NCBI GenBank assembly: GCA_003402375.1
Contig: QFXJ01000045.1
Location: forward strand, 169,290-233,289
Length of the DNA stretch: 64,000 nucleotides
Source: Candidatus Nitrotoga sp. CP45
GTDB taxonomy: Bacteria > Pseudomonadota > Gammaproteobacteria > Burkholderiales > Gallionellaceae
Reading direction: 5' to 3'
The notes below the pieces were generated by a model, which had not been told where the DNA came from, made no database searches, and was given only the letters and a program-made list of their open reading frames with translations. A program made the translations under genes and the position numbers. How positions within the stretch are numbered: position 1 is the stretch's first letter; every line of letters starts with the position of its first letter. Below, one piece after another: positions 24,784 to 40,830 of this stretch.

Positions 24784-24937
24784 TAAGGCCGCTGCGTTGA
24801 CCCACTGCACGCCAACTGCACGGCATAAAGCCTTGCAAAAATTTGTGTCCAAGAAAGAGCAATTCTGACACGACACAAAATGACGCATGCTGAATGATAA
24901 TGGCATTTATTCTTCTCCCTTCCAACTCATAAATAAC

Positions 24938-26437
24938 ATGCGCGCATTCTCGAAGTCGAAGCTCATGGCCCTCCGCCAGTGTCCCAAACGTTTGTGGCTG
25001 GAAGTTCATCGTCCGGACTTGCGCGAAGATTCAGCCGCGACACAGACAAGTTTTCATATAGGTTTTCAGGTTGGCGATATTGCCCAGCGTATTTATGATC
25101 CAGAGGGGCGTGGCGTCGTGATCGACTTGCAAAATGAAGGGTTCAACCGTGCATTCGAGCGTAGCGCGGAATCACTTCATTCAGCACAACCTATCTTTGA
25201 GGCAGGCTTCTCTGCCGCTGGTACATTGGCCTTCGCCGATGTAATGCTGCCGGAGCAAAAGGATGGCAAGCAGATCTGGCGCATGGTCGAAGTAAAATCC
25301 TCTACCAGCGTGAAGGATTACCACCGCGATGACGTGGCAGTGCAGGCGTTTGTGGCTCAGTCAGCGGCCGTCCCGCTGGATGCCATTGCCCTGGCGCACA
25401 TTGATAGCTCATGGGTTTATCCAGGAAATGAACATTACCAAGGGCTGCTAAAAGAAAACGATCTCACCGCCGAGGCGTTCTCTCGGACCGATGAAGTCAA
25501 AGGCTGGATTGCCCAAGCGCAAAGCATCGTCGCCGAGCCTTCCGAGCCTGCCATCGGAACTGGCGACCATTGCGGCACGCCATTTGAATGCGGTTTTTAC
25601 AACTATTGCAGTCGCGACGAGCCAAAGCCGGAATACCCGGTCTGTTGGCTGCCCCGCATTTCTTCAGCAAAGGCAAAAGAGCTCACCATAAAAGGTGTCT
25701 ACGATCTAAAGGATGTACCAGACGACCTGCTCAACGACAAACAACAGCGGGTCAAAGATTACACCCTCGCCAATGAGGTGTTTTTCGACGCTGCTGGTGC
25801 CGCAGCAGATTTGGCTGCACATGTTCTTCCCGCCTATTTTCTCGACTTCGAAACCATCCAGTTCGCCGTACCCATCTGGAAAGGTACCCGCCCCTACCAG
25901 CAGATTACCTTCCAGTTCAGCCTGCACACGCTTGCCGTATCCGGCCAGCTGGAACAGACGGCCTTCCTTGACCTTTCAGGCAATAATCCTTCCAAACCCT
26001 TCGCACATGCGCTGATTGCTGCATGTGGTGAGCAAGGTCCTGTGTACGTCTACAACGCTGGATTTGAGAAAGCGCGCATTCGCGAACTGGCCGAGCGTTA
26101 CCCGCACTTGAGTGAACCGCTGCTAGCCATCAATGCACGTGTGGTCGATCTGCTGCCCATCGCCCGCGAGCGTTACTACCATCCAAGCCAACAAGGCAGC
26201 TGGAGCATCAAAAAGGTGTTGCCCGCCGTAGTCCCCGAACTGCGCTACGAAGCCCTCGACGGCGTGCAAGATGGCGGCATGGCAATGGACGCCTTTCTCG
26301 AAGGCATCCATCCGAACACCAGCGCCGAGCGCAAAGCCCAAATCGAACAGCAACTTCTTGAATACTGCAAGCTCGATACCTACGCCATGGTACGTCTATG
26401 GCAAGTATTTGCCGGCCGCTCTGACCTGAGGCTATAA
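24938..26437 (+). CDS. DUF2779 protein: Cas4/RecB-like nuclease fused to DnaQ-like exonuclease
   Basis: LRQCPKRLWLEVHRPD + EVKSS + CGTPFECGFYNYC (Fe-S/RecB-like); YFLDFETIQFA, YNAGFEKARIRELAERYP, YCKLDTYAMVRLW (DEDD-like motifs). Confidence 0.8.
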   Translation: MRAFSKSKLMALRQCPKRLWLEVHRPDLREDSAATQTSFHIGFQVGDIAQRIYDPEGRGVVIDLQNEGFNRAFERSAESLHSAQPIFEAGFSAAGTLAFADVMLPEQKDGKQIWRMVEVKSSTSVKDYHRDDVAVQAFVAQSAAVPLDAIALAHIDSSWVYPGNEHYQGLLKENDLTAEAFSRTDEVKGWIAQAQSIVAEPSEPAIGTGDHCGTPFECGFYNYCSRDEPKPEYPVCWLPRISSAKAKELTIKGVYDLKDVPDDLLNDKQQRVKDYTLANEVFFDAAGAAADLAAHVLPAYFLDFETIQFAVPIWKGTRPYQQITFQFSLHTLAVSGQLEQTAFLDLSGNNPSKPFAHALIAACGEQGPVYVYNAGFEKARIRELAERYPHLSEPLLAINARVVDLLPIARERYYHPSQQGSWSIKKVLPAVVPELRYEALDGVQDGGMAMDAFLEGIHPNTSAERKAQIEQQLLEYCKLDTYAMVRLWQVFAGRSDLRL

Positions 26438-26440
26438 GCC

Positions 26441-27403
26441 ATGCCCAAACGCCCTGTTTCGTTGGAAACGCTCCAGCTGTCTCATGAGCTATTACGGCGC
26501 ATACCCAAAGGCCGCACCATCACCGCCCCTGAACTGCGCCAACAACTAGCGGACGCTGGCTTTGAGCGAGATATGCGCACCATCCAGCGCCAACTGGAAA
26601 CGCTTTCCGAGTTTTACGACATCGACCGCGATGACAGCGCCAAGCCCTACCAATATAGCTGGAAACCCTGCGCCAAGGGGCTGTCGCTACCATGCCTCAG
26701 CGCACAGGAGTCATTGCTGCTCATGTTGGCTGAGCAGCACTTGAGCAGCTTGCTGCCCGCCAAATTGATGAAATCCATGGACGGCTTCTTCACCCAGGCA
26801 CGCAGCCAACTGGGGGACAAAAGTACGACCCAGCGTGAACGCGAGTGGCTGGAAAAAATACGCGTGATCAGCACCAGCCAGCCGCTGCTGCCACCCAAGA
26901 TTGACCCAACCGTGTTCGATCAAGTCAGTAATGCACTTTATGGCAACCAGTGGCTGGAGGTGGATTACAAAAACGCCGCCGGCAAACGGACGGCAACTCG
27001 AGTGATGCCACTGGGCCTCGCCCAGCAAGGACCACGCATGTATCTTGTGTGCCGTTTTGATGGCTACGACAACGAAAGAAGTCTCGCGCTGCATCGCATC
27101 CTCACCGCACGCGCCTCGACCCTGACCTTTGAACGTCCCAAGGATTTCGACCTCAAGCAATACGACGATGATGGACGCTTTGGGTACGGCGATGGGCAGC
27201 GCGTACGGTTAAGCTTCCGCATTGAAAAGGAAGCGGGTTTACATTTGCTGGAATCGCCATTATCTGCCGATCAGCAGGTGGTGGAACTAGAGGATGCCTA
27301 CGAAATTACTGCGACGGTGGTAGATTCTGCAATGCTGGAGTGGTGGTTGAGGGGATTTGGGAGGGCAGTAAGCGGGGTCGTCAAAGCTCTGTTGCCATTG
27401 TGA
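26441..27403 (+). CDS. WYL-domain transcriptional regulator
   Basis: N-terminal wHTH (TAPELRQQLADAGFERDMRTIQRQLETLSEFYDI) and WYL-type C-terminal domain; 3-bp gap from upstream gene. Confidence 0.85.
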   Translation: MPKRPVSLETLQLSHELLRRIPKGRTITAPELRQQLADAGFERDMRTIQRQLETLSEFYDIDRDDSAKPYQYSWKPCAKGLSLPCLSAQESLLLMLAEQHLSSLLPAKLMKSMDGFFTQARSQLGDKSTTQREREWLEKIRVISTSQPLLPPKIDPTVFDQVSNALYGNQWLEVDYKNAAGKRTATRVMPLGLAQQGPRMYLVCRFDGYDNERSLALHRILTARASTLTFERPKDFDLKQYDDDGRFGYGDGQRVRLSFRIEKEAGLHLLESPLSADQQVVELEDAYEITATVVDSAMLEWWLRGFGRAVSGVVKALLPL

Positions 27404-27445
27404 CAGATCTGCTATCTCAGCGAGATTAAGAACTAACTAAAGGAA

Positions 27446-29854
27446 ATGGCAATGCCAGAATTTTTTGAAAAAGATAAAGGTAAAGGTATCCGTGTTATTC
27501 AGCTGATCCGTTGGCTTGACTGGGCATCGGGAAAAGAGTCGGAACACGAGCACTGTGCGATTGTACTGCCCATGATCCAACGTGGCTCAGTCTGGAAACC
27601 TCATCAGGTCATTGACTTGTGGGACACAATATTTCGCGGCATGCCAATTGGGGGGATGATGGCAAGCTACATCAGCGACTCAAAGGTTCAGTTTTTTCGT
27701 CTGCGAGAAAGGGATTTGGTAACCCTACCGGAATGTGGCGGACTATCCTTGATTGACGGTCAGCAGCGCACACTTACTATGCTTTTGGCTTGGCCTGGAG
27801 CAGGTGAGCACATGAACCGCCGCATATGGGTGGACATGGGTGAACCCGATAAGTCTGACCATCTATTGCGCCTACATGTCACAACAGAAAGCCACCCTTT
27901 TGGCTACCAGCGCGGCGGCAATAGTGGTGAGTCCATTGCTCGGCTATCACTGTCAGAACGTCGTAGCGCCGCAGCGACATATGCAGACCGAACAGAAGCT
28001 TTTCAAGCGGCCAATAAAGAACACTCTGACATGCCTGGATTTGTACATGACGCGGACATCGCGCCTTGGCATAGTACGTTTGCTTTGGACTTGCGAAAAT
28101 TAATCGAGATGTATCCTCTCCATGATAGCCAAGCAATTTCAACTTATGTACATCAGGAAATGACAAATGTCCAACAACGGCTTAAGGAGCGAATTAAGAA
28201 GATTTCAGAGGAGAAATCCTACGACGAACCCTTGAGTAAAGGGATAGCCCATCACCTCAGACGTCGGTTGGACGCGATCGAAAATATCCAACAATGCGAT
28301 TTAGAGCGGCGAATTAATACGTTGATTCAAGGGTTAGAACGGTTGTTCTCCCAATATTTTCCCGTCATTGAAGTGACAACCGAAATGATGGGTACCGAGG
28401 CGGATGATGATACCAAAGATCCTCCGTTGGCCGTTTTATTCAAGCGCATTGGGACGGGTGGCACGAATTTGAGCACTGCCGACTATGTGTTCTCGGTCAT
28501 TAAGCACCGTAACCCAAATTGCCATAACATGGTTGAGAAACAATTATCGAACGTAAAGATTGCCTCAATTTTTACGCCAACAACCCTAGTTATGACTGCA
28601 GTACGGATGACAGCTGCTCAACTTGGCTTGGTCGATCATGTGAAGCTAGAGAAATCTCAATTTACACGCCTTCTACGTGGAGACAAAAATACCAAGAGTG
28701 ACGAGTCATCCGGGAACAAATTTTTGGAGGAGTTCAACCAGCAGATTGCCGAAGGAGGTTCTTTCGTCACAGATCTAGCCACGTTACTTACAACTATTTC
28801 CTACCAGAAATCACAGTTTGAAGATACACAAGACGTTGGGCTGCCAAAGCATGCGCTATGTCTCGTACATATACATGCTCTCGAAATAATACTGTATTGG
28901 GTGCAAAAACAGACTAGCAATAGAGAAGTTGCCATCCAAGAAAATCGACATCGGTTGGTACGATTCATCTTGTATTGGAACTTGGCTGTGCTGGACCCAG
29001 CAAAAGCCAGCAGTGTGTGCTTCGAGTTGTTGAAGACGGGTACAGCTGGCATTGATGGGCAATTCCCCGAAATTGAGTTAATTAGCGAGCTGGCAAAGAA
29101 AGAGAGAGAGCTGGCACTACTCATCCGGAAACCCTCATATCTTCAACAAATTCGGCACCTCACCCATTCACCTTCAGATATAGGAGGGTTACGTGATTCG
29201 AAGCGCTTTGTTGTAGCAACAGACCAAGTCAACGAAGCAGAACGCGGCCAATTGCAGCAGGCAGCAAGGCTATACGAACGATGGTGGAACTTGCACGGTG
29301 GATATAGCCATATACTGTTGCTGTGGTTGCAACGGGATTATGTTTTCCAAGCTTTTGAAGAAAAATCTGCCCAACCTGGATTAGGTGATGACACACCGTA
29401 TGACTTTGACCACATTTGTCCACAAAGCCACTGGAGTTGTTGGACGGGGAAAAAAGAAAATAGGCTGATTGATTTTCACGCTGAAACAGGCGATGGAGCA
29501 GACAAACTAGGGCACAACCGTTTAGGAAATAGCATAGGAAACGTGCGCGTGTGGAACAGCAGCCAAAATCGTGGTGACGGCGATGCAGCCCCTTATGTCA
29601 AATTGAAGTTAGGATCAGTAGAAGCAAAATCGATATTGCGCGATAGTGTAGTTTCCATTGGGGCAGTCGATGGTTTCACCGACGAGACCGAAGCGTGGAA
29701 AGATTGCTCATTCGTCAATGGAAATATGCCGAAGGATCCGAAAGATTGGACGAAGGAACGTGCTCTTGCATTTCAAAAGGCAATAGAAAATCGGACATTC
29801 AATTTGTACAAACGCTTTTATGCTGACTTAAGGTTCGCCGAATGGGAATCGTAG
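27446..29854 (+). CDS. GmrSD-like DUF262 + DUF1524/HNH-type protein
   Basis: MIQRGSVWKPHQVIDLWDTIFRGMPIGGMM, SLIDGQQRTLTML; C-terminal YDFDHICPQSHW...NRLGNSIGNVRVWNSSQNR. Confidence 0.85.
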   Translation: MAMPEFFEKDKGKGIRVIQLIRWLDWASGKESEHEHCAIVLPMIQRGSVWKPHQVIDLWDTIFRGMPIGGMMASYISDSKVQFFRLRERDLVTLPECGGLSLIDGQQRTLTMLLAWPGAGEHMNRRIWVDMGEPDKSDHLLRLHVTTESHPFGYQRGGNSGESIARLSLSERRSAAATYADRTEAFQAANKEHSDMPGFVHDADIAPWHSTFALDLRKLIEMYPLHDSQAISTYVHQEMTNVQQRLKERIKKISEEKSYDEPLSKGIAHHLRRRLDAIENIQQCDLERRINTLIQGLERLFSQYFPVIEVTTEMMGTEADDDTKDPPLAVLFKRIGTGGTNLSTADYVFSVIKHRNPNCHNMVEKQLSNVKIASIFTPTTLVMTAVRMTAAQLGLVDHVKLEKSQFTRLLRGDKNTKSDESSGNKFLEEFNQQIAEGGSFVTDLATLLTTISYQKSQFEDTQDVGLPKHALCLVHIHALEIILYWVQKQTSNREVAIQENRHRLVRFILYWNLAVLDPAKASSVCFELLKTGTAGIDGQFPEIELISELAKKERELALLIRKPSYLQQIRHLTHSPSDIGGLRDSKRFVVATDQVNEAERGQLQQAARLYERWWNLHGGYSHILLLWLQRDYVFQAFEEKSAQPGLGDDTPYDFDHICPQSHWSCWTGKKENRLIDFHAETGDGADKLGHNRLGNSIGNVRVWNSSQNRGDGDAAPYVKLKLGSVEAKSILRDSVVSIGAVDGFTDETEAWKDCSFVNGNMPKDPKDWTKERALAFQKAIENRTFNLYKRFYADLRFAEWES

Positions 29855-29923
29855 CGACAGAGATCAGACTGGACCTACCAAAAGGATTCTGCTTCAAAAG
29901 TCCGCATAAATACCATCTTTCCA

Positions 29924-30970
29924 TTGGGTGTTTGTTTTGAACCGGGAATATTGTTTTTTTACGAAGCAGAAGCTGATATTCAAGACCAGGATGCATCCTT
30001 CGTGTGGTCAATACGATGGATTTATTCAGCCATATTGACCTGTACCGGAAATGAGAAAATTCCATTGCAACCCCCACAAGAAAAATTAGTCGTCGCCATC
30101 TCTTCTCGCGCCCTGTTCAACCTCGATGAGAGCCATGCCGTTTTTAACAATGAAGGCATAGAGGCCTATAGCCTCTATCAAGTGGAGCGCGAAGAAATCC
30201 CGCTCGGGCCCGGCGTGGCGTTCAATCTGGTGAAAAAATTGCTGGCGTTGAACGAGCGTGATCTAGCCAACCCGCGCGTTGAGGTTATTTTATTGTCGCG
30301 TAATAGTGCAGACACCGGACTGCGCATCTTCAACTCGATCCAGCGCCATGGCCTGAATATCAGCCGGGCGGCATTTACGCGAGGCGAGAGTACACATCCC
30401 TATATTTCGGCGTTCGGCGCGCAATTGTTTCTTTCAGCCGATCCAAGTGACGTCCGCAAGGCACTGAAAGCGGGATTCGCTGCTGCGACGATTTTGCCCT
30501 CTTCGGCAGCGCCGTTGGCTGAAGTTAATCCCACACAGTTGCGCATTGCCTTCGACGGCGACGCAGTGTTGTTCTCGGATGAGTCCGAGCGCATCTACAG
30601 ACGGGATGGGCTGGATGCTTTTGAAAGCAACGAAATGCTTGCCGCCAAGCAGCCGCTACCCGGTGGTCCGTTCAAAAACTTCCTTGCCATGCTGCACCAG
30701 ATTCAACTCGATTCACCGGGAGATACTTCTCCTATCCGTACCGCGCTCATGACTGCGCGAGGCGCACCCGCCCACGAGCGCGTCATCCGCACGCTACGCG
30801 CTTGGAACATCCGCATTGATGAAGCGCTATTCCTTGGTGGAAAGGATAAAGGCGAATTCCTGAAGGCTTTCGGGGCGGACATTTTCTTTGATGACCAGCA
30901 AAAACACTGCGAATCCGCTCGTCAGCACGTTGCTACGGGGCATGTGCCACATGGGGTGGCGAATGAGTAA
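29924..30970 (+). CDS. 5'-nucleotidase (NT5C1-like)
   Basis: VVAISSRALFNLDESHAVFNNEGIEAY, VILLSRNSADTGLRIFNSIQRHGLNISRAAFTRGE, LRIAFDGDAVLFSDESERI; true start uncertain. Confidence 0.75.
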   Translation: MGVCFEPGILFFYEAEADIQDQDASFVWSIRWIYSAILTCTGNEKIPLQPPQEKLVVAISSRALFNLDESHAVFNNEGIEAYSLYQVEREEIPLGPGVAFNLVKKLLALNERDLANPRVEVILLSRNSADTGLRIFNSIQRHGLNISRAAFTRGESTHPYISAFGAQLFLSADPSDVRKALKAGFAAATILPSSAAPLAEVNPTQLRIAFDGDAVLFSDESERIYRRDGLDAFESNEMLAAKQPLPGGPFKNFLAMLHQIQLDSPGDTSPIRTALMTARGAPAHERVIRTLRAWNIRIDEALFLGGKDKGEFLKAFGADIFFDDQQKHCESARQHVATGHVPHGVANE

Positions 30971-31100
30971 ATTTGCCTTTTATATTGGCGGCTCTGATGC
31001 AGTAACGAAAAGATAATCGAACATGGTGGTCGGCGATATGCGACACATTACGTCGTTCCTGCATGGAAACTATGGGCGTTACCACCAAACGAGAAATATT

Positions 31101-31532
31101 ATGCCGCAATTGATTGAACACATCGACGCCATCGCCCGTCAAAAACAGCGCGATGTACTCTACATCAAATTTTCCGACCCGAAAAACCCGAATGGGGAAA
31201 TCACAAAACAGAATTCCAATTGGGACTGGGAGTCATCGGTAGGTCGGCAGTCGGTCATAGAGTGGTTAAACAGCAACCAAATCAGCTGGCAGCCCTGCGG
31301 TAATGTTGCCGACACCAATTCGATGAGGTCTTACGCTGGGCAAATTTATATCGACGTACCCTTTGAGGAGACGAACCCAGTCTATCAGCAAGTCCTCGGC
31401 TACTTGGAAAATCCCGATGGGAGCACCCGTCGGCCGGGTGTCTGGTTCTTTGCCTTGACACTCCATGCCGCCATGAAAAATGCTCATCATGATGAACCGG
31501 GTTTCTGGGACCGTTGGGCCGAGAATTTTTAA
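31101..31532 (+). CDS. Hypothetical protein (full-length copy of a duplicated family)
   Basis: 143 aa MPQLIEHIDAIARQKQRDVLYIKF...MKNAHHDEPGFWDRWAENF; truncated paralogue at 40629. Confidence 0.65.
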   Translation: MPQLIEHIDAIARQKQRDVLYIKFSDPKNPNGEITKQNSNWDWESSVGRQSVIEWLNSNQISWQPCGNVADTNSMRSYAGQIYIDVPFEETNPVYQQVLGYLENPDGSTRRPGVWFFALTLHAAMKNAHHDEPGFWDRWAENF

Positions 31533-31713
31533 AGCAAGGCACGGATTAACGGATCGGGATAGCCATGGAGTTCATAGGCGTATATTTCTCACCGAAGCAG
31601 ATTTCCAACCCGGTGACATTTTCTCCAAGCCCACACAAGTCGGCGCTCGTGGTTGCCGATTGGATTGAGAAAAACCTACCTATCCGTATCCTTGATCCCA
31701 GTCGGGTAGTTCG

Positions 31714-31956
31714 GTGCTGGGACGCGCGAGAATGTCCTAGGCCGGCCCCGCTAGAATACGCGCCGTGCTCTATATGGCTGCCGTCGTGGGAACACGCTAC
31801 AACCCACACGTCAAAGCTGTTTATGAACGCCTGCTTGCCCGAGGCAAGTCCAAGATGTCCTCCCTCGGTGCCGCAATGCGCAAGCTGGTGCATTTGTGCT
31901 TTGGCGTACTCAAAACTCAACAGCCGTATCAACACGATTATCTGAAAAATGCTTGA
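31714..31956 (+). pseudogene. IS110-family transposase C-terminal remnant
   Basis: VLGRARMS*AGPARIRAVLYMAAVVGTRYNPHVKAVYERLLARGKSKMSSLGAAMRKLVHLCFGVLKTQQPYQHDY with in-frame TAG. Confidence 0.88.
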
Positions 31957-32020
31957 CTTTAAAGACGGAATCTACCGGGCTCGTCCACTTATATCCAGAG
32001 ACCCAATATTTGATTACAGC

Positions 32021-32968
32021 TTAAAATAATTTACGTACTTGATTCAATACCCACTGAGTCTCGGGATCGCTTTCATATAAAGGGTGCCATATTAGATTTA
32101 ACCGAAAACCTGGGAACCCTTTAGGCGGCTCAAGGAGGCAGAGGGGAAAATGGTTCATTAGTTTTGTCGCGATGCGGAATGGAACACTCAGTAGGTAGTC
32201 GCTTCCGCTGACAATTTGTGCAGCTACCCAATAATTTCGCGTCGTTACTGCGATGGATCTTTGTAACCCCTGCTCGGCAAGCCAGGTTTCCACAATATTC
32301 GTACGCAAACCTAAGGGCGATGGATAAACATGACGTAATTCCTCGAATTGTTTGAGGTTTAAATGCTGACGGCCTGCCAACGGGTGGTTCTGGCTGACCA
32401 GACAAACTAGCCGATCACTAATCCAATTTTCAGAGCGCAATCGCTTGGAAATCTTGCTGTAGGTCTCCACGCCAATGATGAAATTGAGCTGACCGGTTTC
32501 CAGTAAAGGCTCGGGGTCCTCCGCTGTTAGCATGTGTACAACAAGCTCAACATTTGGCGCTGACTGGCGTAGGCACGCAGCTAACGCCGGTAGAACGACA
32601 TTCTCACTGTAGTCATTCATACCAATAATGAATCGCGCCCGCGAGGTGTCTGGCTCGAAGGGCTGTGCGGGCTGTATGGTACGAACTACTTGTTTCAGGA
32701 TGGAGCGCACCGGCGCTTCCAAAGCAAGGGCGCGCGGCGTCGGTTGCATCCCCTTGACCCCGCGCACCAGGATGGGGTCATCAAGCATCTCGCGTAATCG
32801 CTTCAGTGCATTACTCATGGCTGACTGACTTAGAAAGACACGCTCAGCAGCCCGAGATACATTTTTCTCTTGCATTAGCACATCAAAAACCAGCAATAAA
32901 TTGAGATCAATCTGACGCAGTGTCGAGTTATTATTTATTTCGTGAATACCTGAATCATTATTATTCAT
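32021..32968 (-). CDS. LysR-family transcriptional regulator
   Basis: LRQIDLNLLLVFDVLMQEKNVSRAAERVFLSQSAMSNALKRLREML. Confidence 0.93.
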   Translation of the reverse strand: MNNNDSGIHEINNNSTLRQIDLNLLLVFDVLMQEKNVSRAAERVFLSQSAMSNALKRLREMLDDPILVRGVKGMQPTPRALALEAPVRSILKQVVRTIQPAQPFEPDTSRARFIIGMNDYSENVVLPALAACLRQSAPNVELVVHMLTAEDPEPLLETGQLNFIIGVETYSKISKRLRSENWISDRLVCLVSQNHPLAGRQHLNLKQFEELRHVYPSPLGLRTNIVETWLAEQGLQRSIAVTTRNYWVAAQIVSGSDYLLSVPFRIATKLMNHFPLCLLEPPKGFPGFRLNLIWHPLYESDPETQWVLNQVRKLF

Positions 32969-33020
32969 TTTACAAATTATAGCAGGGCAATTAAGCTTTC
33001 TCCGTCGAATATTCGATGAT

Positions 33021-33575
33021 ATGAAAAGGAAAAGTAAAATGAAAACAACTCTTGGATTTAGCGTTAAAAAAGGTGTCCGAACTTTAGCAGCCATCACTTT
33101 GTTCAGTGTATTTGGATTCGGTCATTCTGCCCATGCAGAAGATAAACCGACCACTCCAGCTGCAACGCCTCAGCTGACTCTGGAATTGGCCCAGAAAATT
33201 GCGATGTCGACTTTACAACAATGTCGTCAGGATGGCTATGCTGTCAGTGTCGCCGTGGTCGATCGTAGCGGGGTACTTGTTACCCAGATGCGCAACCCAG
33301 CGGCGGGTCCCCATACTATTGGCAGTAGCTTAGGCAAGGCGTTTACATCCGCCAGCATGGGACAACCAACAGCGCGCTTGGCTAACGCTATCGCAGAAAA
33401 CCCCGCACTTAACGGTATGCGTGACATGGACTCCAGAATGGTGATTCTTGCCGGAGGTTTGCCCATTGTCATTGATGGTCAACGCGTCGGCGGCATTGGC
33501 GTAGGTGGCGCACCAGGAGGAAATCTGGATGAAGCCTGCGCGGCGCACGGTCTGCAACAGATCGGCGCCAAATAA
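33021..33575 (+). CDS. GlcG/HbpS family heme-binding-like protein (DUF336)
   Basis: Signal peptide; TLELAQKIAMSTLQQCRQDGYAVSVAVVDRSGVLV...GGLPIVIDGQRVGGIGVGGAPGG. Confidence 0.88.
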   Translation: MKRKSKMKTTLGFSVKKGVRTLAAITLFSVFGFGHSAHAEDKPTTPAATPQLTLELAQKIAMSTLQQCRQDGYAVSVAVVDRSGVLVTQMRNPAAGPHTIGSSLGKAFTSASMGQPTARLANAIAENPALNGMRDMDSRMVILAGGLPIVIDGQRVGGIGVGGAPGGNLDEACAAHGLQQIGAK

Positions 33576-34672
33576 TGCGCGAGCGACAACCAAAGCATAT
33601 GGAATTTGCCCGCCAGGGCTGGTTCCAGAACTTATTGCTCGTCATCGCCTTGAGTTGGACTGGTAGTGTTCATGCCAGCGGCGAGTCCACAACGTCGAAT
33701 TCTGACGTGTTACTTGTCAGCCAATTCAAGGCTCATCACTTAGCTTATGTGGATCCTCAAAAAGGTGTCATCGCGCGGGTAAAAGTAGGGCGTGCCCCAT
33801 ACGGTGTTGCCATTAGCCAGGATGGGCATGCCTATGTTGCTACCGCTGAAGGCGTTGCGGTTGTTGACATCCGTTCGCGTCTGCGTACCGCACTGATAAC
33901 GTACCGAAGTTCATTGACCGGCGTGCAATGGGGTGAATATCGGCAAGGTGGCATGGGCATCGCCGTTTCTTCAGACGGGAAAACGGTGGCCGTGGGCGTC
34001 AATCGCGGCAATCGCGCCGGGCAGTTGGAGATCATCTCGACGCAATCGCAAACCGTCACGGCCAGTGTGCCGATAGGTATTCGACCCTTCCAGGTGTTAT
34101 TCAGCAACGAGGGCGACGAGATTTATAGCATTGACCACGACTCGTATTCAGTGACCGCTTATAATCTGAACGACCGTTCATTGCGGGTCTTTGACGTGGC
34201 ACCGCTCGGCTATGGGGGGTTTGCTAAACCACACTATGCCGCTATTAACGCAAAGGGACATCTCTTGTTGCCGATACAAGGCCGCACTCTACTTCAGTTG
34301 AACCCGAAGACGGGAGAGCAAACAAAAATTCCTCTATCTGCTCAAACCCATCAGCACGGTGTTGCATTGAGCAACGATGCTTCTACGCTATTTGTTGTGG
34401 GTACAGGTCCCGCTGGTGAGGTTAGCGGTGCAGCCGTACTTAGTCGTATTAATCTGCGCGATGGACGGGAAACACATATTCCGCTACAGGTAGACCATGA
34501 ACAAATTGTGCTAAGCGACGATGGCAAGATAGCCTATCTAACTGGCGGAAACAGTTTTACGGAAGGCTGGGATGGTATTAGCGTCATAAATCTTACGAGC
34601 AATAAAATTCGATCCATCCAAGTTGACAAGCAGCCCCTGGGGATCGCGTTATGGAAAAAATACGGCATGTAA
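33575..34672 (+). CDS. YncE-like beta-propeller secreted protein
   Basis: Signal peptide and repeated VKVGRAPYGVAISQDGHAYVAT-type blades; stop/start overlap with upstream gene. Confidence 0.8.
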   Translation: MRERQPKHMEFARQGWFQNLLLVIALSWTGSVHASGESTTSNSDVLLVSQFKAHHLAYVDPQKGVIARVKVGRAPYGVAISQDGHAYVATAEGVAVVDIRSRLRTALITYRSSLTGVQWGEYRQGGMGIAVSSDGKTVAVGVNRGNRAGQLEIISTQSQTVTASVPIGIRPFQVLFSNEGDEIYSIDHDSYSVTAYNLNDRSLRVFDVAPLGYGGFAKPHYAAINAKGHLLLPIQGRTLLQLNPKTGEQTKIPLSAQTHQHGVALSNDASTLFVVGTGPAGEVSGAAVLSRINLRDGRETHIPLQVDHEQIVLSDDGKIAYLTGGNSFTEGWDGISVINLTSNKIRSIQVDKQPLGIALWKKYGM

Positions 34673-34821
34673 ACGTACTGCGGTTGCCTTGAAGTACATG
34701 CTGTAATAATGCACTTTCGGCGGTCTTGATTTGCCCATAAAACACCTCCATTCCGTTAGGGGGAGGTGTTAACTATTTTGGGGGAAGAATAATGTCCGGT
34801 TGATAGAAGAATTAGGCCAGC

Positions 34822-35229
34822 TCACTTAATTTCTATTCCTGCCACACGAGCAAAAGCAGCGTAATCTAATGCTGTATTTTGGTCATGCACAATTCGCCAT
34901 TGACCTTCTTGCAACTGAAACACATAAGTAAGCCAAGTGGTGAAGGGAGCATCATCTGCTTTAGACCGATATTGGTATTTGATGAGAGCCATAGCCATGT
35001 CCTCACCCACCACTTTATGGACAACTGTCCCTTCCCAAATCCAGCTCGGGTCTTTGAACCATTGCTTGTGAAGTTCAATTGTTTCAGATGGGGTGGTGAA
35101 AGCGTGCCCATTTTGAACAATAGTATATAGAGTGTCATTTTTTGTGAGATGTGTCTTAAACGCCTCTATATCTCTGCTGGAAATGGCCGCGAAATGTTTT
35201 TGTAGCGCTGTATCAAAATCTGGCTTCAT
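34822..35229 (-). CDS. SnoaL/NTF2-like (DUF4440-type) protein
   Basis: LQKHFAAISSRDIEAFKTHLTKNDTLYTIVQNGHAF...EGQWRIVHDQNT. Confidence 0.75.
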   Translation of the reverse strand: MKPDFDTALQKHFAAISSRDIEAFKTHLTKNDTLYTIVQNGHAFTTPSETIELHKQWFKDPSWIWEGTVVHKVVGEDMAMALIKYQYRSKADDAPFTTWLTYVFQLQEGQWRIVHDQNTALDYAAFARVAGIEIK

Positions 35230-35250
35230 ACGATATTCCTCAGTCAATTA

Positions 35251-35311
35251 GGGTGGGCACGTCTTTGCCTCGTAGAGGTTCTCGCACCCGGAGGGTGTGC
35301 CCACGCGGGCA
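35251..35311. repeat. REP-like palindrome
   Basis: GGGTGGGCACGTCTTTGCCTCGTAGAGGTTCTCGCACCCGGAGGGTGTGCCCACGCGGGCAG; inverse copy at 39796-39850. Confidence 0.85.
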
Positions 35312-35386
35312 GCGTTAATCATACCCCAGCACCGCACTTTCCACCGCAACAGCCCAATCATGCGTATATACCCTAGCACGCACATA
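35312..35386 (-). pseudogene. RAYT transposase 3'-end fragment
   Basis: Minus-strand YVRARVYTHDWAVAVESAVLGYD* vs intact RAYT C-terminus [23 protein letters not shown]. Confidence 0.88.
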
Positions 35387-35535
35387 AATTAAGTGCCGAC
35401 TATCCGCTGCGCTGATCACCCATCAAGACCGGGTCTCGCGGCGGCTGGCAAAAAGAAGACCATATTCGTACCAGTCGCCAAACCACGCGTGAGTAAAATG
35501 TTAGGCTTCATTTCATGCAGCCTAAACTACCGAGC

Positions 35536-35564
35536 TTGACAAAATATATGACCGGTCGTATTCT
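35536..35564 (+). promoter_or_regulatory. Sigma70-type promoter with palindromic TetR operator in spacer
   Basis: TTGACA (35536-35541), 17-bp spacer containing ATGACCGGTCGTAT, TATTCT (35559-35564). Confidence 0.7.
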
Positions 35565-35575
35565 TAGCATCAATT

Positions 35576-36163
35576 ATGATTAACAAATTATCTAAACGCA
35601 CACAACTGCTCGACCAAGGCGTCTATCTATTGATGAACCAGGGCTACCATGCAACAGGTATTAATGAAATTGTAAACGCCGTACATGTACCTAAAGGTTC
35701 TTTTTATAGCTACTTTGATAGTAAAGAGAATTTTGCTGCTGAAGCCATTAGCCATTATATCGAACCGTTTATCGAGCTATTAACGAGACACCTACAACAC
35801 TCACAAGTTGACCCACTCAGTGCTTTAAAAAATTACTATGCAGAGCTTATTGTTGAAGTGGAAAATAATGGATACAAAGGGGGATGTTTATTAGGCAACC
35901 TGATGGGTGAAATTGGTGATACCAGTGAGCTGTGTAATCAAGCGCTAAAGTGTGCTGTTGAACGCTACAAATTGTTGCAATATAAGGCATTACTGCAAGC
36001 ACAAAAAGAAGGTACAGTACGCACTGATAAGAGTGCCGAAATTATGGCTAACTTATTGGTAAATAACTGGCAAGGCGCGTTGTTACGGATGAAAATTGAA
36101 CAGTCCGTGCAGCCTTTGCAAGAGTTTTGCGATACGTTACTGAATGATTATTTTGTTGCCTAG
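35576..36163 (+). CDS. TetR-family transcriptional regulator
   Basis: LLDQGVYLLMNQGYHATGINEIVNAVHVPKGSFYSYFDSKENFAAEAI. Confidence 0.93.
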   Translation: MINKLSKRTQLLDQGVYLLMNQGYHATGINEIVNAVHVPKGSFYSYFDSKENFAAEAISHYIEPFIELLTRHLQHSQVDPLSALKNYYAELIVEVENNGYKGGCLLGNLMGEIGDTSELCNQALKCAVERYKLLQYKALLQAQKEGTVRTDKSAEIMANLLVNNWQGALLRMKIEQSVQPLQEFCDTLLNDYFVA

Positions 36164-36510
36164 TTGACTGTAAATTAGAAACAAGGCCGGACGACACAAC
36201 TGCCGGTTGTTTGGGTCTTTTTTATGACTAACTACAAGACCGACCGACATATATTAACCATGGATTTTGATATGGGGAAGAAAAACTTTAATGTATTTTA
36301 TTAACAAGCGAAACCGCAAATACACGAAATAGATGCATTAAATATTAAATCTCTAATGGTAGCATTCCAGCCTGGAAAGCTGCTGAATTATCAGTGAAAA
36401 TTTCACCAACCAGACATAAGTATTAATTATTTAAAATAACCGTTTAACAAAAAATTTTAAAGCGATATGGCCATGATGGTCCATATCTTTTTTTTAACAA
36501 CCAGTAAAAG

Positions 36511-36524
36511 ATGACTGGTCATAT
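36511..36524. promoter_or_regulatory. Second putative TetR operator
   Basis: ATGACTGGTCATAT, near match to ATGACCGGTCGTAT at 35548-35561. Confidence 0.6.
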
Positions 36525-36542
36525 AACAACATAGGAGACAAT

Positions 36543-36827
36543 TTGCCTAAATATATTATTGAACGAGAAATCCCAAACGCAGGCCAATTAGCCGCAGCAG
36601 AGTTGCAACAAATATCACAAAAATCCTGCTGTATTCTGAATGAAATGGGGCCGCAAATTCAGTGGGTGGAAAGTTATGTAACAGACGACAAAATCTATTG
36701 CATTTATATTGCACCCGATAAACAAAGTATTAAAACACATGCAGAACGTGGTGAATTTCCGGCAAATTCTATTGCTGAAGTAATAACCATGATTAATCCA
36801 ACAACAGCTGAACATGGCAGGGGTTAA
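36543..36827 (+). CDS. DUF4242 domain protein
   Basis: MPKYIIEREIPNAGQLAAAELQQISQKSC...QIQWVESYVTDDKIYCIYIAP; TTG start. Confidence 0.85.
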   Translation: MPKYIIEREIPNAGQLAAAELQQISQKSCCILNEMGPQIQWVESYVTDDKIYCIYIAPDKQSIKTHAERGEFPANSIAEVITMINPTTAEHGRG

Positions 36828-36832
36828 ACATC

Positions 36833-37012
36833 ATGAAAATACAATGGGATAAACAAAGATGCTCTCACTCTGGCAACTGTGTTAAATCATTGCCCGAGGT
36901 ATTTAAAATTTTAGACGGGCAATTTGTTATCGAGCCTGATAAAGCGGCTTACGATGAAGTCATTAAAGTTGTAAATCAATGTCCTTCAGGCGCACTTAAA
37001 TGTATCGATTGA
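36833..37012 (+). CDS. 59-aa mono-cluster Fe-S (YjdI/Fer4_19-like) protein, absent from ORF track
   Basis: Manual translation MKIQWDKQRCSHSGNCVKSLPEVFKILDGQFVIEPDKAAYDEVIKVVNQCPSGALKCID. Confidence 0.85.
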   Translation: MKIQWDKQRCSHSGNCVKSLPEVFKILDGQFVIEPDKAAYDEVIKVVNQCPSGALKCID

Positions 37013-37112
37013 CTAATTAAAATGAGTCTTCTTGTACTTAGCTCTGTATCTTTATGATTAATATGCTTCTGAGAGTTGATTGTTTAATTAATAACCTATT
37101 AAAGGAGTCATT

Positions 37113-38312
37113 ATGGCTAGCAAAACAAAACGTATTATCGTTGTTGGTGGAGGGATTGGCGGCACGATGACCGCTAACAACTTAGTTGCTAAGCTTTATC
37201 CTGAAATTCTAAATGGTGAAATTGAGATTATGATGCTCTCAAACTCCCCCAACCATGTTTACAAGCCAGCCAATATGTATGTGGCTTTTAATGCTTATCA
37301 TCCTCATGAATTAGTCCGCAAACAACGTTCATTATTACGCCCTGAAATTATTTTTCATGTTGATGGTGTTGAAAGCTTTGAATTTAAGCAAAATCGCGTC
37401 CTCTGTGAAAGTGGTAAGCGATACGATTATGAGTATCTCGTTATTTCAACAGGCTGTGTTCCCGCGCCAGAACGCATTGAAGGCTTGAAGGAAGCAGGTG
37501 ATCATTTTTATCAGACTAAAGCGGCGCAACAACTTGCTCAAAAATTACGCACCATCGAAGAGGGTCGTATATTTATAACAGTCAATTTCCCCAAAACCCC
37601 TAACGTGCCTCATCAATGTGGCATTGCTCCTATCGAAACCACGTTAATGCTTGATGAATATTTACGTAAACGAAATGTGCGAGACCGTGTAGAGATTATT
37701 TATAGCTATCCTACGGTCTCTCAATTATTGCGTAATTGTTTATTTCTACAGAAACCAACCTGTGACGTGTTGCCTACCATTTTTGATAGTAAAGGCATTA
37801 AATATCAACGCGGTTTTACTTTAGATAAGGTTGATCCCGGAGCAAAGATAGCTTATTCGGAGGAAGGCAAATCCCAAGAGTTTGATATTTTAATGGCCAC
37901 TCCACCTATCCGCGCGGTAGATGCCGTAATTAATTCAGGAAAATCAGAAGCACAAAATAATGAAGGCTGGTTACCTACTGACTTTGAAACCTTGAAAATG
38001 TACGGTTCCGATAATGTCTATGTGATGGGCGATACCGTTGATTTGCCAGTTAGTAAAGCCGGCGGCACTTGCCATAACCAGTCACCTGTCGTCGTGGAAA
38101 ATATCGCTTCGGAAATTCGTCGCGGTTATACCTCTGCCATTTATGATGGAAAAGTTCAAGCAATCGCTCAAATGGGATTGGAAGCCGGCATGCCACTCTG
38201 GTACGACTATAAGAGTGATGTACAGGTCGCACCACCTACCAAGCTCGGGGGGTTAATGCGTAAAACGTTTAATCGCGGTATTTATTGGGCCGTTGCGCGT
38301 GGGATAGTTTGA
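37113..38312 (+). CDS. Sulfide:quinone-oxidoreductase-like FAD-dependent oxidoreductase
   Basis: IIVVGGGIGGTMTANNL FAD motif; Cys at STGCVP, PHQCGIAPIE, GGTCHNQ. Confidence 0.85.
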   Translation: MASKTKRIIVVGGGIGGTMTANNLVAKLYPEILNGEIEIMMLSNSPNHVYKPANMYVAFNAYHPHELVRKQRSLLRPEIIFHVDGVESFEFKQNRVLCESGKRYDYEYLVISTGCVPAPERIEGLKEAGDHFYQTKAAQQLAQKLRTIEEGRIFITVNFPKTPNVPHQCGIAPIETTLMLDEYLRKRNVRDRVEIIYSYPTVSQLLRNCLFLQKPTCDVLPTIFDSKGIKYQRGFTLDKVDPGAKIAYSEEGKSQEFDILMATPPIRAVDAVINSGKSEAQNNEGWLPTDFETLKMYGSDNVYVMGDTVDLPVSKAGGTCHNQSPVVVENIASEIRRGYTSAIYDGKVQAIAQMGLEAGMPLWYDYKSDVQVAPPTKLGGLMRKTFNRGIYWAVARGIV

Positions 38313-38328
38313 TTAAAGGGGAATTCTT

Positions 38329-38742
38329 ATGTCTAAAGAAATGCAGTTAAATATAGTTGAAGAAAAACTTATGTCGGATACGGCACTTTATGACCCAGCA
38401 ACTATCGAGGGCATTAAGAACTTAATCGAAAAAACAGCCCCATTAGTACAAGCCGGTCGGTTCAACAACATCATCGATTTATTGTCAATCATATCGGACA
38501 ATATCCAATTCCTTGATGAAGCGGCACTGGAAAAAACTACTAAAGTAGGCGAGGAAATTTTAGCGCTGGGCTGGACAGCCGGTAATGCTGTCCGTATGGC
38601 GAATGCTCAAACGGAGGCATTAGAAAAGCCACCCGGTTTGTTTCAATTGATCAGCTCCCTAAACGACCCCGATGTTCGTCGTTCATTACATTTTTTCATT
38701 GGTACGATGCGCATTATTGGCCGACAGATGAAAAATGACTAA
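38329..38742 (+). CDS. DUF1641 domain protein
   Basis: Helical 137-aa protein directly downstream of SQR-like gene; NDPDVRRSLHFFIGTMRIIGRQ tail. Confidence 0.75.
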   Translation: MSKEMQLNIVEEKLMSDTALYDPATIEGIKNLIEKTAPLVQAGRFNNIIDLLSIISDNIQFLDEAALEKTTKVGEEILALGWTAGNAVRMANAQTEALEKPPGLFQLISSLNDPDVRRSLHFFIGTMRIIGRQMKND

Positions 38743-38771
38743 TTAGTCAAGTAGAGTGGGCACGTTTTTGC

Positions 38772-38812
38772 CTCACGGGCGCTGCGCGGTTTTATCGGGC
38801 AGCGCCCGTGAG
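38772..38812. repeat. Strong GC hairpin (REP variant/terminator-like)
   Basis: CTCACGGGCGCTGC...GCAGCGCCCGTGAG, preceded by GTGGGCACGTTTTTGCCT shared with REP copies. Confidence 0.75.
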
Positions 38813-38820
38813 ATGATGGG

Positions 38821-39141
38821 TTAGGCCGGTGTTGCAAGCTTGAGGCCAACAATACCGGCGACGATTAGGCCAAGACTTAACAGCCGCATAGGATTGGCTG
38901 ACTCACCGAGCAAAACAATGCCCAGGATTGCGGTACCGACGGCACCTACACCTACCCATACAGCATATGCGGTGCCTATTGGCAGCGACTTCATGGCGAT
39001 ACCGAGCAGTCCGAAGCTAATGATCATTGAAAGTACGGTGCAGACCGTTGGCCAAATGCGGGTAAAGCCATCTGTGTATTTAAGCCCAACCGCCCAGCCG
39101 ATCTCAAACAAACCTGCCACAACAAGAATAAACCAATTCAT
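38821..39141 (-). CDS. sugE: SMR-family guanidinium exporter SugE/Gdx
   Basis: [31 protein letters not shown]...[30 protein letters not shown]. Confidence 0.92.
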
Positions 39142-39155
39142 AAATACCTCTCTGA

Positions 39156-39208
39156 TAGGTGGGGCCGTCCCCAGTTGATGTATAGAGGTGAGGTCGTCCC
39201 CACTTCTG
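39156..39208 (-). promoter_or_regulatory. Guanidine-II (mini-ykkC) riboswitch
   Basis: Minus strand: GTGGGG-ACGA-CCTCAC, linker, TGGGG-ACGG-CCCCA immediately upstream of sugE; two short hairpins with ACGR loops. Confidence 0.92.
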
Positions 39209-39245
39209 AGATGCCTAACGTAAAATAGTGCCCACGCGGGCAGCA

Positions 39246-39788
39246 TTAATCATACCCCAGCACCGTATTTTCCATCGCAACAGCCCAGTCATGCGCATGC
39301 ACCCCATCACGCACATAGCGGTGAAATGTCGAATGAGGCCAATCAACCGCACGTTGACCATGCCCGTGTTTAACCGGGTTGAAATGAATGTAATCGAGAT
39401 GGCGGGCAAAATCATTTTCATCACGAATTGGGTGTTCCCAGAATCGCCGTTGCCAGATAGTCGATTCGCGATGTTTGAGTTTGGATGCAGTCACCCAGTC
39501 GGCACGACGATAATCTTCTCTGCAGGCCAAAGACACCGCTCGCTTGATTATCATCCAACGGGCGGAAAAATCGGCATCACCGTCAGGTAATGTCCACACG
39601 AAATGCAAATGGTCAGGCAACAACCCCCATACATCTATGACGAAAGGACGCGCCATGCGCACCGTTTGGATTGAGGCGCGCAATGCGTTACGAATCGCTT
39701 CGTCACATAGAATCGACTGCCGCCGGTAAGCGACCACCGTAAAGAAATATCTTGAGCCTGCAGCCATTGCGCGGCGATAACGTGACAT
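39246..39788 (-). mobile_element. REP-associated tyrosine transposase (RAYT)
   Basis: FVIDVWGLLPDHLHFVWTLPDGDADFSARWMIIKRAVS (HLH within DHLH) and WQRRFWEHPIRDENDFARHLDYIHFNPVKHG. Confidence 0.95.
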
Positions 39789-39795
39789 AGAATCC

Positions 39796-39850
39796 GCGTG
39801 GGCACACCCTCCGGGTGCGAGAACCTATACGAGGCAAAGACGTGCCCAAC
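39796..39850. repeat. REP-like palindrome upstream of RAYT
   Basis: CGTGGGCACACCCTCCGGGTGCGAGAACCTATACGAGGCAAAGACGTGCCC. Confidence 0.85.
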
Positions 39851-39942
39851 CTTGACTTTGATCCCGTACCTTTCTTTACACATCATGCCGCTACACTTAA
39901 TATGCGCACACTACATACGCATATGAGAAAAGGATCGCTACC

Positions 39943-40188
39943 ATGCTCCAGCTTTATGATGAAACAGCTTCAAAAAAGGCAACAAATTTAAGCATTAACA
40001 GTGACTTGCTGTCAAAGGCAAGAGAATTAAAAATTAATCTATCTGCCACTCTAGAGCGAGCACTGGCAGATGAGCTTAGAACTACTGTGCGAGACAAATG
40101 GCTTAAGAGTAATAAAAAAGCTATAGATTCATTGAATGAATTAGCTGAAAGAAATGGTTTATTTTCTGATTCATACCGGAATTTCTAA
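39943..40188 (+). CDS. ccdA: CcdA-like antitoxin
   Basis: ASKKATNLSINSDLLSKARELKINLSATLERALADEL; 1-bp overlap with ccdB. Confidence 0.88.
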   Translation: MLQLYDETASKKATNLSINSDLLSKARELKINLSATLERALADELRTTVRDKWLKSNKKAIDSLNELAERNGLFSDSYRNF

Positions 40189-40505
40189 TGAGCCAATTTA
40201 CTCTTTACCGCAATGTTGATAGTACCTCTAATGAGACATACCCATACTTCGTTGACATTCAAAACACTTTACTCAATGACTTAAACTCACGGGTTGTTAT
40301 ACCATTGTCACCGCACACGGCATTACAAAAAACTGACGTTAAGAATCTATGTCCAATTATTGATATTGATGGTACAAGCTTTGTACTACTTACTCATCAA
40401 ATAACATCTGTTCCAAAATCAATTTTAAAGTCCGAAGTGAGAACACTGGAACATATCCGATATGAAATACTCGGTGCGATGGACATGCTTATTTCAGGTA
40501 TCTAG
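40188..40505 (+). CDS. ccdB: CcdB-like toxin
   Basis: MSQFTLYRNVDSTSNETYPYFVDIQNTLLNDLNSRVVIPL...LTHQITSVPKSILKSEV. Confidence 0.92.
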   Translation: MSQFTLYRNVDSTSNETYPYFVDIQNTLLNDLNSRVVIPLSPHTALQKTDVKNLCPIIDIDGTSFVLLTHQITSVPKSILKSEVRTLEHIRYEILGAMDMLISGI

Positions 40506-40556
40506 CGCCGCGCGAGACCTGCCCCAGCTGTCCTGACCTGAATCCTGATTCCGTTG

Positions 40557-40782
40557 TCGGGCGATATGCGACACATTACGTCGTTTCCATATGGAAACTA
40601 TGGGTGTTGCCACCAAACAAGAAATATTATGCCGCAATTGATAGAACACATTGACGCCATCGCTCGTCAAAAGCAGCGTGCTGTACTCTACATAAAATTT
40701 TCCGACCCAGAGAACCCGGATTGGGAAATCAAAAAATCAAATTCCACTTGGAACTGGGAGTCATCGGTAGGTCGGCAGTTTG
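40557..40782 (+). pseudogene. Truncated copy of the 31101 hypothetical gene and its 5' region
   Basis: Nucleotide similarity from GCGATATGCGACACATTACGTCGTT through GAGTCATCGGTAGGTCGGCAG; homology then stops. Confidence 0.85.
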
Positions 40783-40830
40783 CATGGTCGAGTATGTGGC
40801 GAGATGAAAACTATATTGCAATATTCAGGG

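What the first reader, a model, noticed from the sequence alone, without database searches (positions are those of the whole stretch)
24938..29854. Three-gene nuclease-regulator-nuclease cluster (DUF2779 double nuclease, WYL regulator, GmrSD-like): candidate under-described defence module
Seen: three co-directional ORFs. The gap between the first and second is 3 bp and between the second and third about 42 bp. ORF1 carries RecB/Cas4-like features (CPKRLWL, EVKSS, CGTPFECGFYNYC) plus a DnaQ-like DEDD pattern (FLDFET, NAGFEKARIREL, YCKLDTYAMV). ORF2 has an HTH-WYL layout. ORF3 has a DUF262 QRGSVWKP/IDGQQR core and a C-terminal DHICP...N HNH-type motif as in GmrSD. Established: WYL regulators and DUF262/DUF1524 proteins are recurrent in anti-phage islands. 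Inference: the three form one WYL-controlled defence unit.
Basis: partly seen in the sequence, partly recalled or inferred. Interest (0 to 1): 0.8.

Follow-up and report, generated by a model that had tools for sequence, protein, structure and literature searches.

The report
WYL-controlled swappable nuclease defence cassette
In a bacterium of the nitrite-oxidising genus Candidatus Nitrotoga (assigned by close match), a mobile gene set pairs an almost unstudied double nuclease with its own regulator and an interchangeable DNA-cutting enzyme, and a regulator-linked DNA switch found in many bacteria suggests that the set is turned on during attack by foreign DNA.

Summary
The three ORFs, gaps and motifs are as described. 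ORF1 is a Cas4-like Fe-S PD-(D/E)XK nuclease fused to an ExoI-like exonuclease. ORF2 is a wHTH-WYL-WCX regulator. ORF3 is a one-chain GmrSD/BrxU-like protein.

ORF1-ORF2 is a conserved pair: adjacent in 29 of 73 testable loci, trees congruent (Mantel r 0.70, 0/5000). The third gene is swappable cargo (GmrSD-like, PDC-S26, PDC-M27-type, glycosylase, Nmad2), yet the ORF3 subfamily was only ever found behind this pair (five genomes).

At one Nitrotoga site two species carry the pair with different GmrSD-like genes, one a frameshifted pair plus a PD-(D/E)XK gene, one a decayed remnant; at least six are empty.

New: an operator, TGCGACA-N5-TGTCGCA, precedes 24 of 29 operons (0.86 expected) and occurs in 40/50 WYL-encoding loci against 2/30 without. 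A -10-like hexamer lies a fixed 8 bp away and no -35 is seen, as for the ssDNA-triggered activator DriD, unlike repressor BrxR.

Best reading: a WYL-switched, cargo-swapping defence cassette. Ligand and anti-phage activity are untested.

The parts
24792..40813 (.). Variable island between a conserved YgjP/WLM-type gene and an RNA-modification (S4-domain) gene; absent in at least six other Nitrotoga species
   Evidence: Direct junction 24791|40813 (with only about 30-130 bp between) in L150, L151, L152, L153, L154, L156
24869..24887 (+). Predicted WYL operator CACGACACAAAATGACGCA, 69 bp before the ORF1 ATG
   Evidence: PWM score 21.6, above the best of 20 shuffles of the window (20.4); same position in L149, L046, L158; same place in 24 of 29 operons
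24896..24901 (+). Predicted -10 element GATAAT, 8 bp after the operator; no -35 hexamer
   Evidence: Fixed spacing across 34 sites; no sigma-70 promoter match before ORF1
24938..26437 (+). ORF1 (499 aa): N-terminal Cas4/MGME1-like PD-(D/E)XK domain with four conserved Cys, C-terminal DUF2779 ExoI-like exonuclease domain (about residues 298-491)
26441..27403 (+). ORF2 (320 aa): wHTH-WYL-WCX transcription regulator
27446..29854 (+). ORF3 (802 aa): one-chain GmrSD-like protein, DUF262 N-domain (QRGSVWKP, IDGQQR) and His-Me-type C-terminal nuclease motif (DHICP..N..N..NR)
   Evidence: PDB profile hit to DUF262 protein 7p9k E 1e-15
29924..30970 (+). 5'-nucleotidase family gene (PF06189), island cargo; true start probably near 30077; terminator-like hairpin at 30958-30977
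   Evidence: also near the module in L045, L172, L018
31039..31057 (+). Second predicted WYL operator, 62 bp before the likely ATG (31101) of a small island gene
   Evidence: PWM 23.8
31101..31532 (+). Small protein of no Pfam family, predicted regulon member (listed ORF begins at 31023)
   Evidence: also in L149, L046
40567..40585 (+). Third operator copy, in a broken duplicate of the small gene (40554-40982)
   Evidence: PWM 23.8; near-identical duplicated segment

Best explanation
This is a mobile, cargo-swapping defence cassette. A constant front end is made of a DUF2779 double nuclease (Cas4-like end-processing nuclease plus 3'-5' exonuclease) and a WYL regulator. The regulator binds TGCGACA-N5-TGTCGCA operators in front of its own operon and of other island genes. 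From the promoter geometry (operator where the -35 should be, a -10 at fixed distance, no -35) I infer that it is an activator of the DriD/PafBC kind, triggered by a nucleic-acid ligand that arises when foreign DNA enters or replicates. Activation would raise the nuclease and the effector behind it; here that effector is a GmrSD-like Type IV-type endonuclease, expected to cut foreign (probably modified) DNA while ORF1 degrades the ends. Shown computationally: the pair, its co-inheritance, the operator and its link to WYL genes, the swap of cargo at one site, intact catalytic motifs. Inferred: activation rather than repression, the ligand, the targets, and protection against phage or plasmids.
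For: Pair adjacent in 29/73 loci; EXO and WYL trees share clades, Mantel r 0.70, 0/5000 permutations. ORF1 fold: Cas4 8d3l, MGME1 and ExoI in Foldseek, invariant active-site residues. Cargo behind the pair: GmrSD-like (window, L149, L060, L045, L172, two DUF262 genes in L037), PDC-M27ABC (L016), M27/Zac-like (L043), PDC-S26 (L046), OGG-like glycosylase (L042), Nmad2 (L035). Same-site swap in Nitrotoga. WYL-GmrSD gap 5 bp in L149. Operator in 24/29 operons, 0.86 expected, including 12/13 AAA-type operons not used to find the motif; 40/50 WYL+ loci versus 2/30 WYL- loci, Fisher p 5e-11. -10-like hexamer (at least 4/6) at one offset in 21/34 sites and at the next in 8/34, 0-4 elsewhere; no -35. 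DriD: site ATACGAC-N7-GTCGTAT, overlapping the -35, fixed distance to -10, poor -35 (PMC12340889).
Against: No infection or expression data. The window's operator is 3 mismatches from the consensus, and at that stringency the genome as a whole shows no excess (162 versus 139 control matches). One of the two arginines shown to matter for ssDNA binding in PafB (R211) aligns with an invariant Ala (A216) in ORF2, so the ligand may not be ssDNA. Many DUF2779 loci have no WYL neighbour, and this island lacks the AAA+ partner common in relatives. GmrSD_C is sub-threshold in ORF3.
Confidence: 0.6

Rival explanations
1. The same cassette, but ORF2 is a BrxR/CapW-type repressor that keeps the operon silent and is released during infection.
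For: Characterised WYL regulators of BREX and CBASS are repressors (PMC9122601; PMC11804915); an operator over the -35 region could also block RNA polymerase.
Against: The BrxR operator lies downstream of the -10, here it lies 8 bp upstream of it and replaces the -35; with no -35 there would be little basal promoter to repress. ORF2 profile matches in the PDB are DriD and PafBC, both activators; no BrxR chain passes E 0.1.
Confidence: 0.25
2. ORF1-ORF2 is a DNA-damage repair module (end resection plus a DriD-like damage regulator); ORF3 and the other cargo are passengers of a defence island with no functional tie.
For: Cas4, MGME1, AddB and ExoI relatives are DNA-end processors; DriD and PafBC are damage regulators; many DUF2779 genes stand alone.
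Against: Patchy, mobile distribution: 15/274 genomes of the class, 4/19 Nitrotoga species, plasmids, decayed copies. The ORF3 subfamily was found only behind the pair, with a 5-bp gap in L149. The same operator fronts defence-type operons with this WYL but without DUF2779 (L114).
Confidence: 0.15
3. ORF3 is a free-standing Type IV restriction enzyme with its own promoter; ORF1-ORF2 merely lie upstream.
For: 42-bp gap; ORF3-like proteins act alone in other systems (BrxU, PMC12409352 by title).
Against: No operator, promoter or terminator match on the plus strand in 27404-27445; WYL-GmrSD gap of 5 bp in L149, short gaps in L060 and L172.
Confidence: 0.1

Closest known systems
GmrSD / BrxU Type IV restriction enzymes (DUF262 + DUF1524)
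   Same: ORF3 has the DUF262 core (GmrSD_N E 2e-17) and a His-Me-type C-terminal motif in one chain, as BrxU does (PDB 7p9k, E 1e-15)
   Different: Low identity, GmrSD_C below the Pfam cut-off, found only behind a DUF2779-WYL pair in the genomes sampled
DriD / PafBC WYL activators
   Same: wHTH-WYL-WCX architecture, best PDB profile matches, CGAC-N7-GTCG operator core, site over the -35 at fixed distance from -10
   Different: Encoded in mobile defence islands with their target operon; invariant Ala where PafB has the ssDNA-binding R211; ligand unknown
BrxR / CapW WYL regulators of defence systems
   Same: WYL regulator travelling with many different defence systems (PMC9122601)
   Different: BrxR is a repressor with its operator downstream of the -10; no sequence match to BrxR chains at E 0.1
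Cas4 and MGME1 / AddB PD-(D/E)XK nucleases; E. coli ExoI
   Same: The fold and residues of each ORF1 half
   Different: Both fused in one protein; no cas1/cas2 beside it; no AddA-like helicase
PADLOC candidates PDC-M27, PDC-S26, HEC-05
   Same: Occur directly behind the pair as cargo, or resemble ORF3
   Different: The PADLOC v2.0.0 scan gave ORF1 only weak Cas4 matches, no DUF2779 component

Membership tests
DUF2779 (PF11074, RNase H-like family F.17) | Domain match above the curated cut-off | tested here: met
   143 bits versus 23
DUF2779 (PF11074, RNase H-like family F.17) | Fused PD-(D/E)XK (DUF83-like) domain, as noted in PMC3985635 | tested here: met
   Invariant D101/E118/K120/Q136 and four Cys; Foldseek Cas4
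CRISPR Cas4 | Cas1/Cas2 or a CRISPR array nearby | tested here: not met
   No cas1/cas2-like ORF recognised in 14-42 kb by reading the ORF list; arrays were not searched for
GmrSD / Type IV restriction | DUF262 domain with QR and DGQQR motifs | tested here: met
   E 2e-17, invariant motifs
GmrSD / Type IV restriction | C-terminal DUF1524 nuclease | tested here: inconclusive
   Pfam 17.7 bits versus cut-off 23; motif residues invariant in four homologues
GmrSD / Type IV restriction | NTP-stimulated cleavage of modified DNA | not testable with these tools
   Needs biochemistry
DriD-type WYL activators | wHTH-WYL-WCX homodimer architecture | tested here: inconclusive
   Order of domains and profile hits met; dimer not tested
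DriD-type WYL activators | Operator over the -35 at fixed distance from -10, poor -35 | tested here: met
   the DriD rule is from PMC12340889
DriD-type WYL activators | ssDNA-binding arginines in the WYL domain | tested here: not met
   R213 and R219 conserved, but the PafB R211 position is Ala216 in all 25 sequences
BrxR repressors | Operator downstream of the -10 | tested here: not met
   Operator lies upstream of the predicted -10 (BrxR layout)
Known PADLOC defence systems | All core genes of one system present | tested here: not met
   Only weak partial matches: Cas4, WYL, HEC-05, PDC-M55C

The most novel reading that the evidence does not exclude
ORF1 and ORF2 form a sensing loop: the double nuclease acts on invading or damaged DNA and its single-stranded products, or a related nucleic-acid ligand, switch on the WYL activator, which then raises the operon and other operator-bearing island genes. 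This would be a cargo-independent infection-activated front end that different effectors plug into.
Probability: 0.2. Interest if true: 0.85.

Novelty: new variant of a known kind. Interest (0 to 1): 0.62.

Why it matters
How defence islands are switched on is largely unknown, and the described defence-associated WYL regulators are mostly repressors. This case offers a conserved regulator-operator pair with activator-type promoter geometry in front of many different defence-type genes, so the trigger question becomes testable with one binding site and one protein. It also gives a functional setting to DUF2779, a family with six papers in the library searched and no assigned role beyond predicted exonuclease, and shows cargo exchange behind a constant front end at a single chromosomal site.

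Tried and rejected
ORF3 structure from a single sequence: pLDDT 34, discarded. ORF1 against PDB by sequence: no hit, solved by fold comparison instead. ORF1 in phage records: none. An AAA+ partner elsewhere in the genome: only generic AAA proteins at 31-35% identity. Genome-wide operator search at 3 mismatches: no excess over the control, so the loose pattern is not specific by itself; a PWM hit on C44 lies 3' of a TamA-like gene and was not pursued. Idea that the three genes are one obligate unit: rejected by cargo swaps. Idea that the regulator is BrxR-like: disfavoured by promoter layout. Plasmid search with ORF3: no match at 1e-20. The upstream ATG at 24887 as start of ORF1: rejected by alignment, and it would overlap the predicted promoter.
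Full report
What is there. ORF1 (24938-26437), ORF2 (26441-27403) and ORF3 (27446-29854) are intact, co-directional and 3 and 42 bp apart. The window lies in a 2.8-Mb genome; its congener G279 is the same contig as the record of Candidatus Nitrotoga sp. SPKER (207,724 bases; identical match layout), so the host is taken as Nitrotoga.

ORF1. Pfam gives DUF2779 (E 6e-42). A 14-sequence alignment and a 68-sequence alignment show an N-terminal half with invariant C15, D101, E118, K120, C212, C218, C224 and Q136 (invariant in the first, at least 90% in the second), which is the Cas4/AddB layout of a PD-(D/E)XK nuclease with four cysteines for an Fe-S cluster. The C-terminal half has E305, E377, Y476 and D480 invariant and D303 at least 90%. 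The AlphaFold model is confident (pLDDT 94.9, pTM 0.87) and Foldseek against the PDB finds Cas4 (8d3l, probability 1.00), MGME1 (1.00), E. coli ExoI (0.99) and AddB. The RNase H-like survey PMC3985635 had predicted 3'-5' exonuclease activity for DUF2779 and noted the DUF83 fusion. The library searched holds six papers that mention the family and none that describes a function in defence.

ORF1 with ORF2. Of 80 loci fetched from species genomes plus four others, 73 have at least 1 kb behind ORF1; in 29 of these a WYL gene follows on the same strand, usually within 30 bp. Over 27 pairs the protein distances correlate (Mantel r 0.70, none of 5000 permutations reached it) and the two trees share the main clades. 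In 12 of 26 such loci with room, a tandem AAA+ ATPase of about 700 aa precedes ORF1 on the same strand. The window's relatives mostly lack it, and this genome has only generic AAA proteins.

Cargo. What stands behind the pair varies: GmrSD-like proteins (window, L149, L060, L045, L172; two DUF262 genes in L037), PDC-M27ABC (L016; same clusters in L041), an M27/Zac-like set (L043), PDC-S26 (L046), an OGG-like glycosylase (L042), Nmad2 (L035). The ORF3 subfamily itself was found only there: samples of the class (274 genomes) and phylum (399 genomes, query L060) gave no other genome; the order (398 genomes) gave two besides the window, and in both the pair lies directly upstream (one of them is the L060 genome). 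Its QRG-VWKP, DGQQR and DH..P..N..N..NR motifs are invariant in four members, and its profile matches a solved DUF262 protein (7p9k).

One site, several states. In Nitrotoga the pair occurs in 4 of 19 species, always after the YgjP-like gene. The window has ORF3; G280 (L149) has a pair 93% identical but a GmrSD-like gene only about 30% identical to ORF3, starting 5 bp after the WYL gene; G279 has a PDC-S26 nuclease with ORF1 and ORF2 both frameshifted; G278 (L158) keeps an ORF1 with stops, deleted into the 5'-nucleotidase. In L150, L151, L152, L153, L154 and L156 the flanks join directly: empty sites. So the whole interval 24792-40813 is an island.

Operator. A dyad found in the upstream regions of the ATPase-less loci was extended to TGCGACA-N5-TGTCGCA. 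Within 160 bp before the first gene of the operon (ORF1, or the ATPase where present) 24 of 29 operons have it at 3 mismatches or fewer, against 0.86 expected from random windows of the same loci; among ATPase-type operons, which had no part in finding the motif, 12 of 13. WYL genes of the same type without DUF2779 also have it before their operon (L114-L117). Across the 80 loci, 40 of 50 with a WYL homologue have a site at 2 mismatches or fewer, against 2 of 30 without (Fisher p 5e-11). Related loci are not fully independent, so the p-value is optimistic, but the contrast is large. In the window the three best PWM hits of 64 kb are 24869 (before ORF1), 31039 and 40567 (before two copies of a small gene), all above the best of 20 shuffles. 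No hit above 14 occurs at this site in eight Nitrotoga regions without the pair.

Activator or repressor. Eight bp after the operator lies a -10-like hexamer: at least 4 of 6 TATAAT matches at that offset in 21 of 34 sites and at the next in 8, against 0-4 elsewhere and on the other side; no TTGACA (5 of 6) at spacers 15-19. The operator thus takes the -35 position. This is the layout reported for DriD, an ssDNA-triggered WYL activator with the site ATACGAC-N7-GTCGTAT, fixed distance to -10 and poor -35 (PMC12340889), and it shares the CGAC-N7-GTCG core. BrxR sites lie downstream of the -10 and repress (PMC9122601). DriD and PafBC are also the best PDB matches of ORF2. Activation is therefore the better inference. 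The ligand stays open: of the PafB arginine pair R211/R214 needed for ssDNA binding (PMC11804915), ORF2 keeps R219 but has an invariant Ala216.

Mechanism, with status. Shown computationally: conserved pair, operator, promoter geometry, intact catalytic motifs, cargo exchange, mobility. Inferred: a nucleic-acid ligand made during invasion activates ORF2; ORF2 raises ORF1, itself and the effector; ORF3 cuts foreign, probably modified, DNA and ORF1 degrades ends. Untested: any protection.

Verdict. It is a new variant of a known kind (WYL-regulated modular defence), with a testable regulatory switch as the new element.

Noticed in passing
window 31032-31698 and 40560-40779: A segment of the island is duplicated (the small operator-bearing gene and a broken copy), flanking a further 9 kb of cargo (LysR regulator, heme-type protein, sulfide:quinone reductase-like gene) that the other pair-bearing Nitrotoga lack here.
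   Followed up: partly
window 29924-30970; L045, L172, L018: A PF06189 5'-nucleotidase recurs near the module in several lineages and is lost with it in Nitrotoga; it could be a nucleotide-depleting partner or an ordinary passenger.
   Followed up: partly
L016:5571-6680, L048:3249-4337, L172:10734-11672 (plus strand as stored), L035:5658-6752: Tubulin/FtsZ-like GTPase genes (PF00091 in L016 and L048) lie beside the AAA+ ATPase or the pair; function unclear.
   Followed up: no
L042:9049-9900, L172:3695-4597, cluster c7 in L034, L036, L095: A deacetylase-like gene (by eye) recurs beside the pair.
   Followed up: no
L114-L117: The same WYL type, with the same operator, heads other operons without DUF2779 (PDC-M27-like clusters in Pantoea; a radical-SAM/phosphatase set in Citrobacter and Raoultella; a TerB-like set in Vibrio).
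   Followed up: partly
window 39246-39788 (-): ORF that looks like a REP-associated tyrosine transposase, inside the island.
   Followed up: no
L046:10001-12457 and L158:3213-4245: Decayed copies of the pair in two Nitrotoga species, suggesting that the cassette is dispensable or costly.
   Followed up: yes
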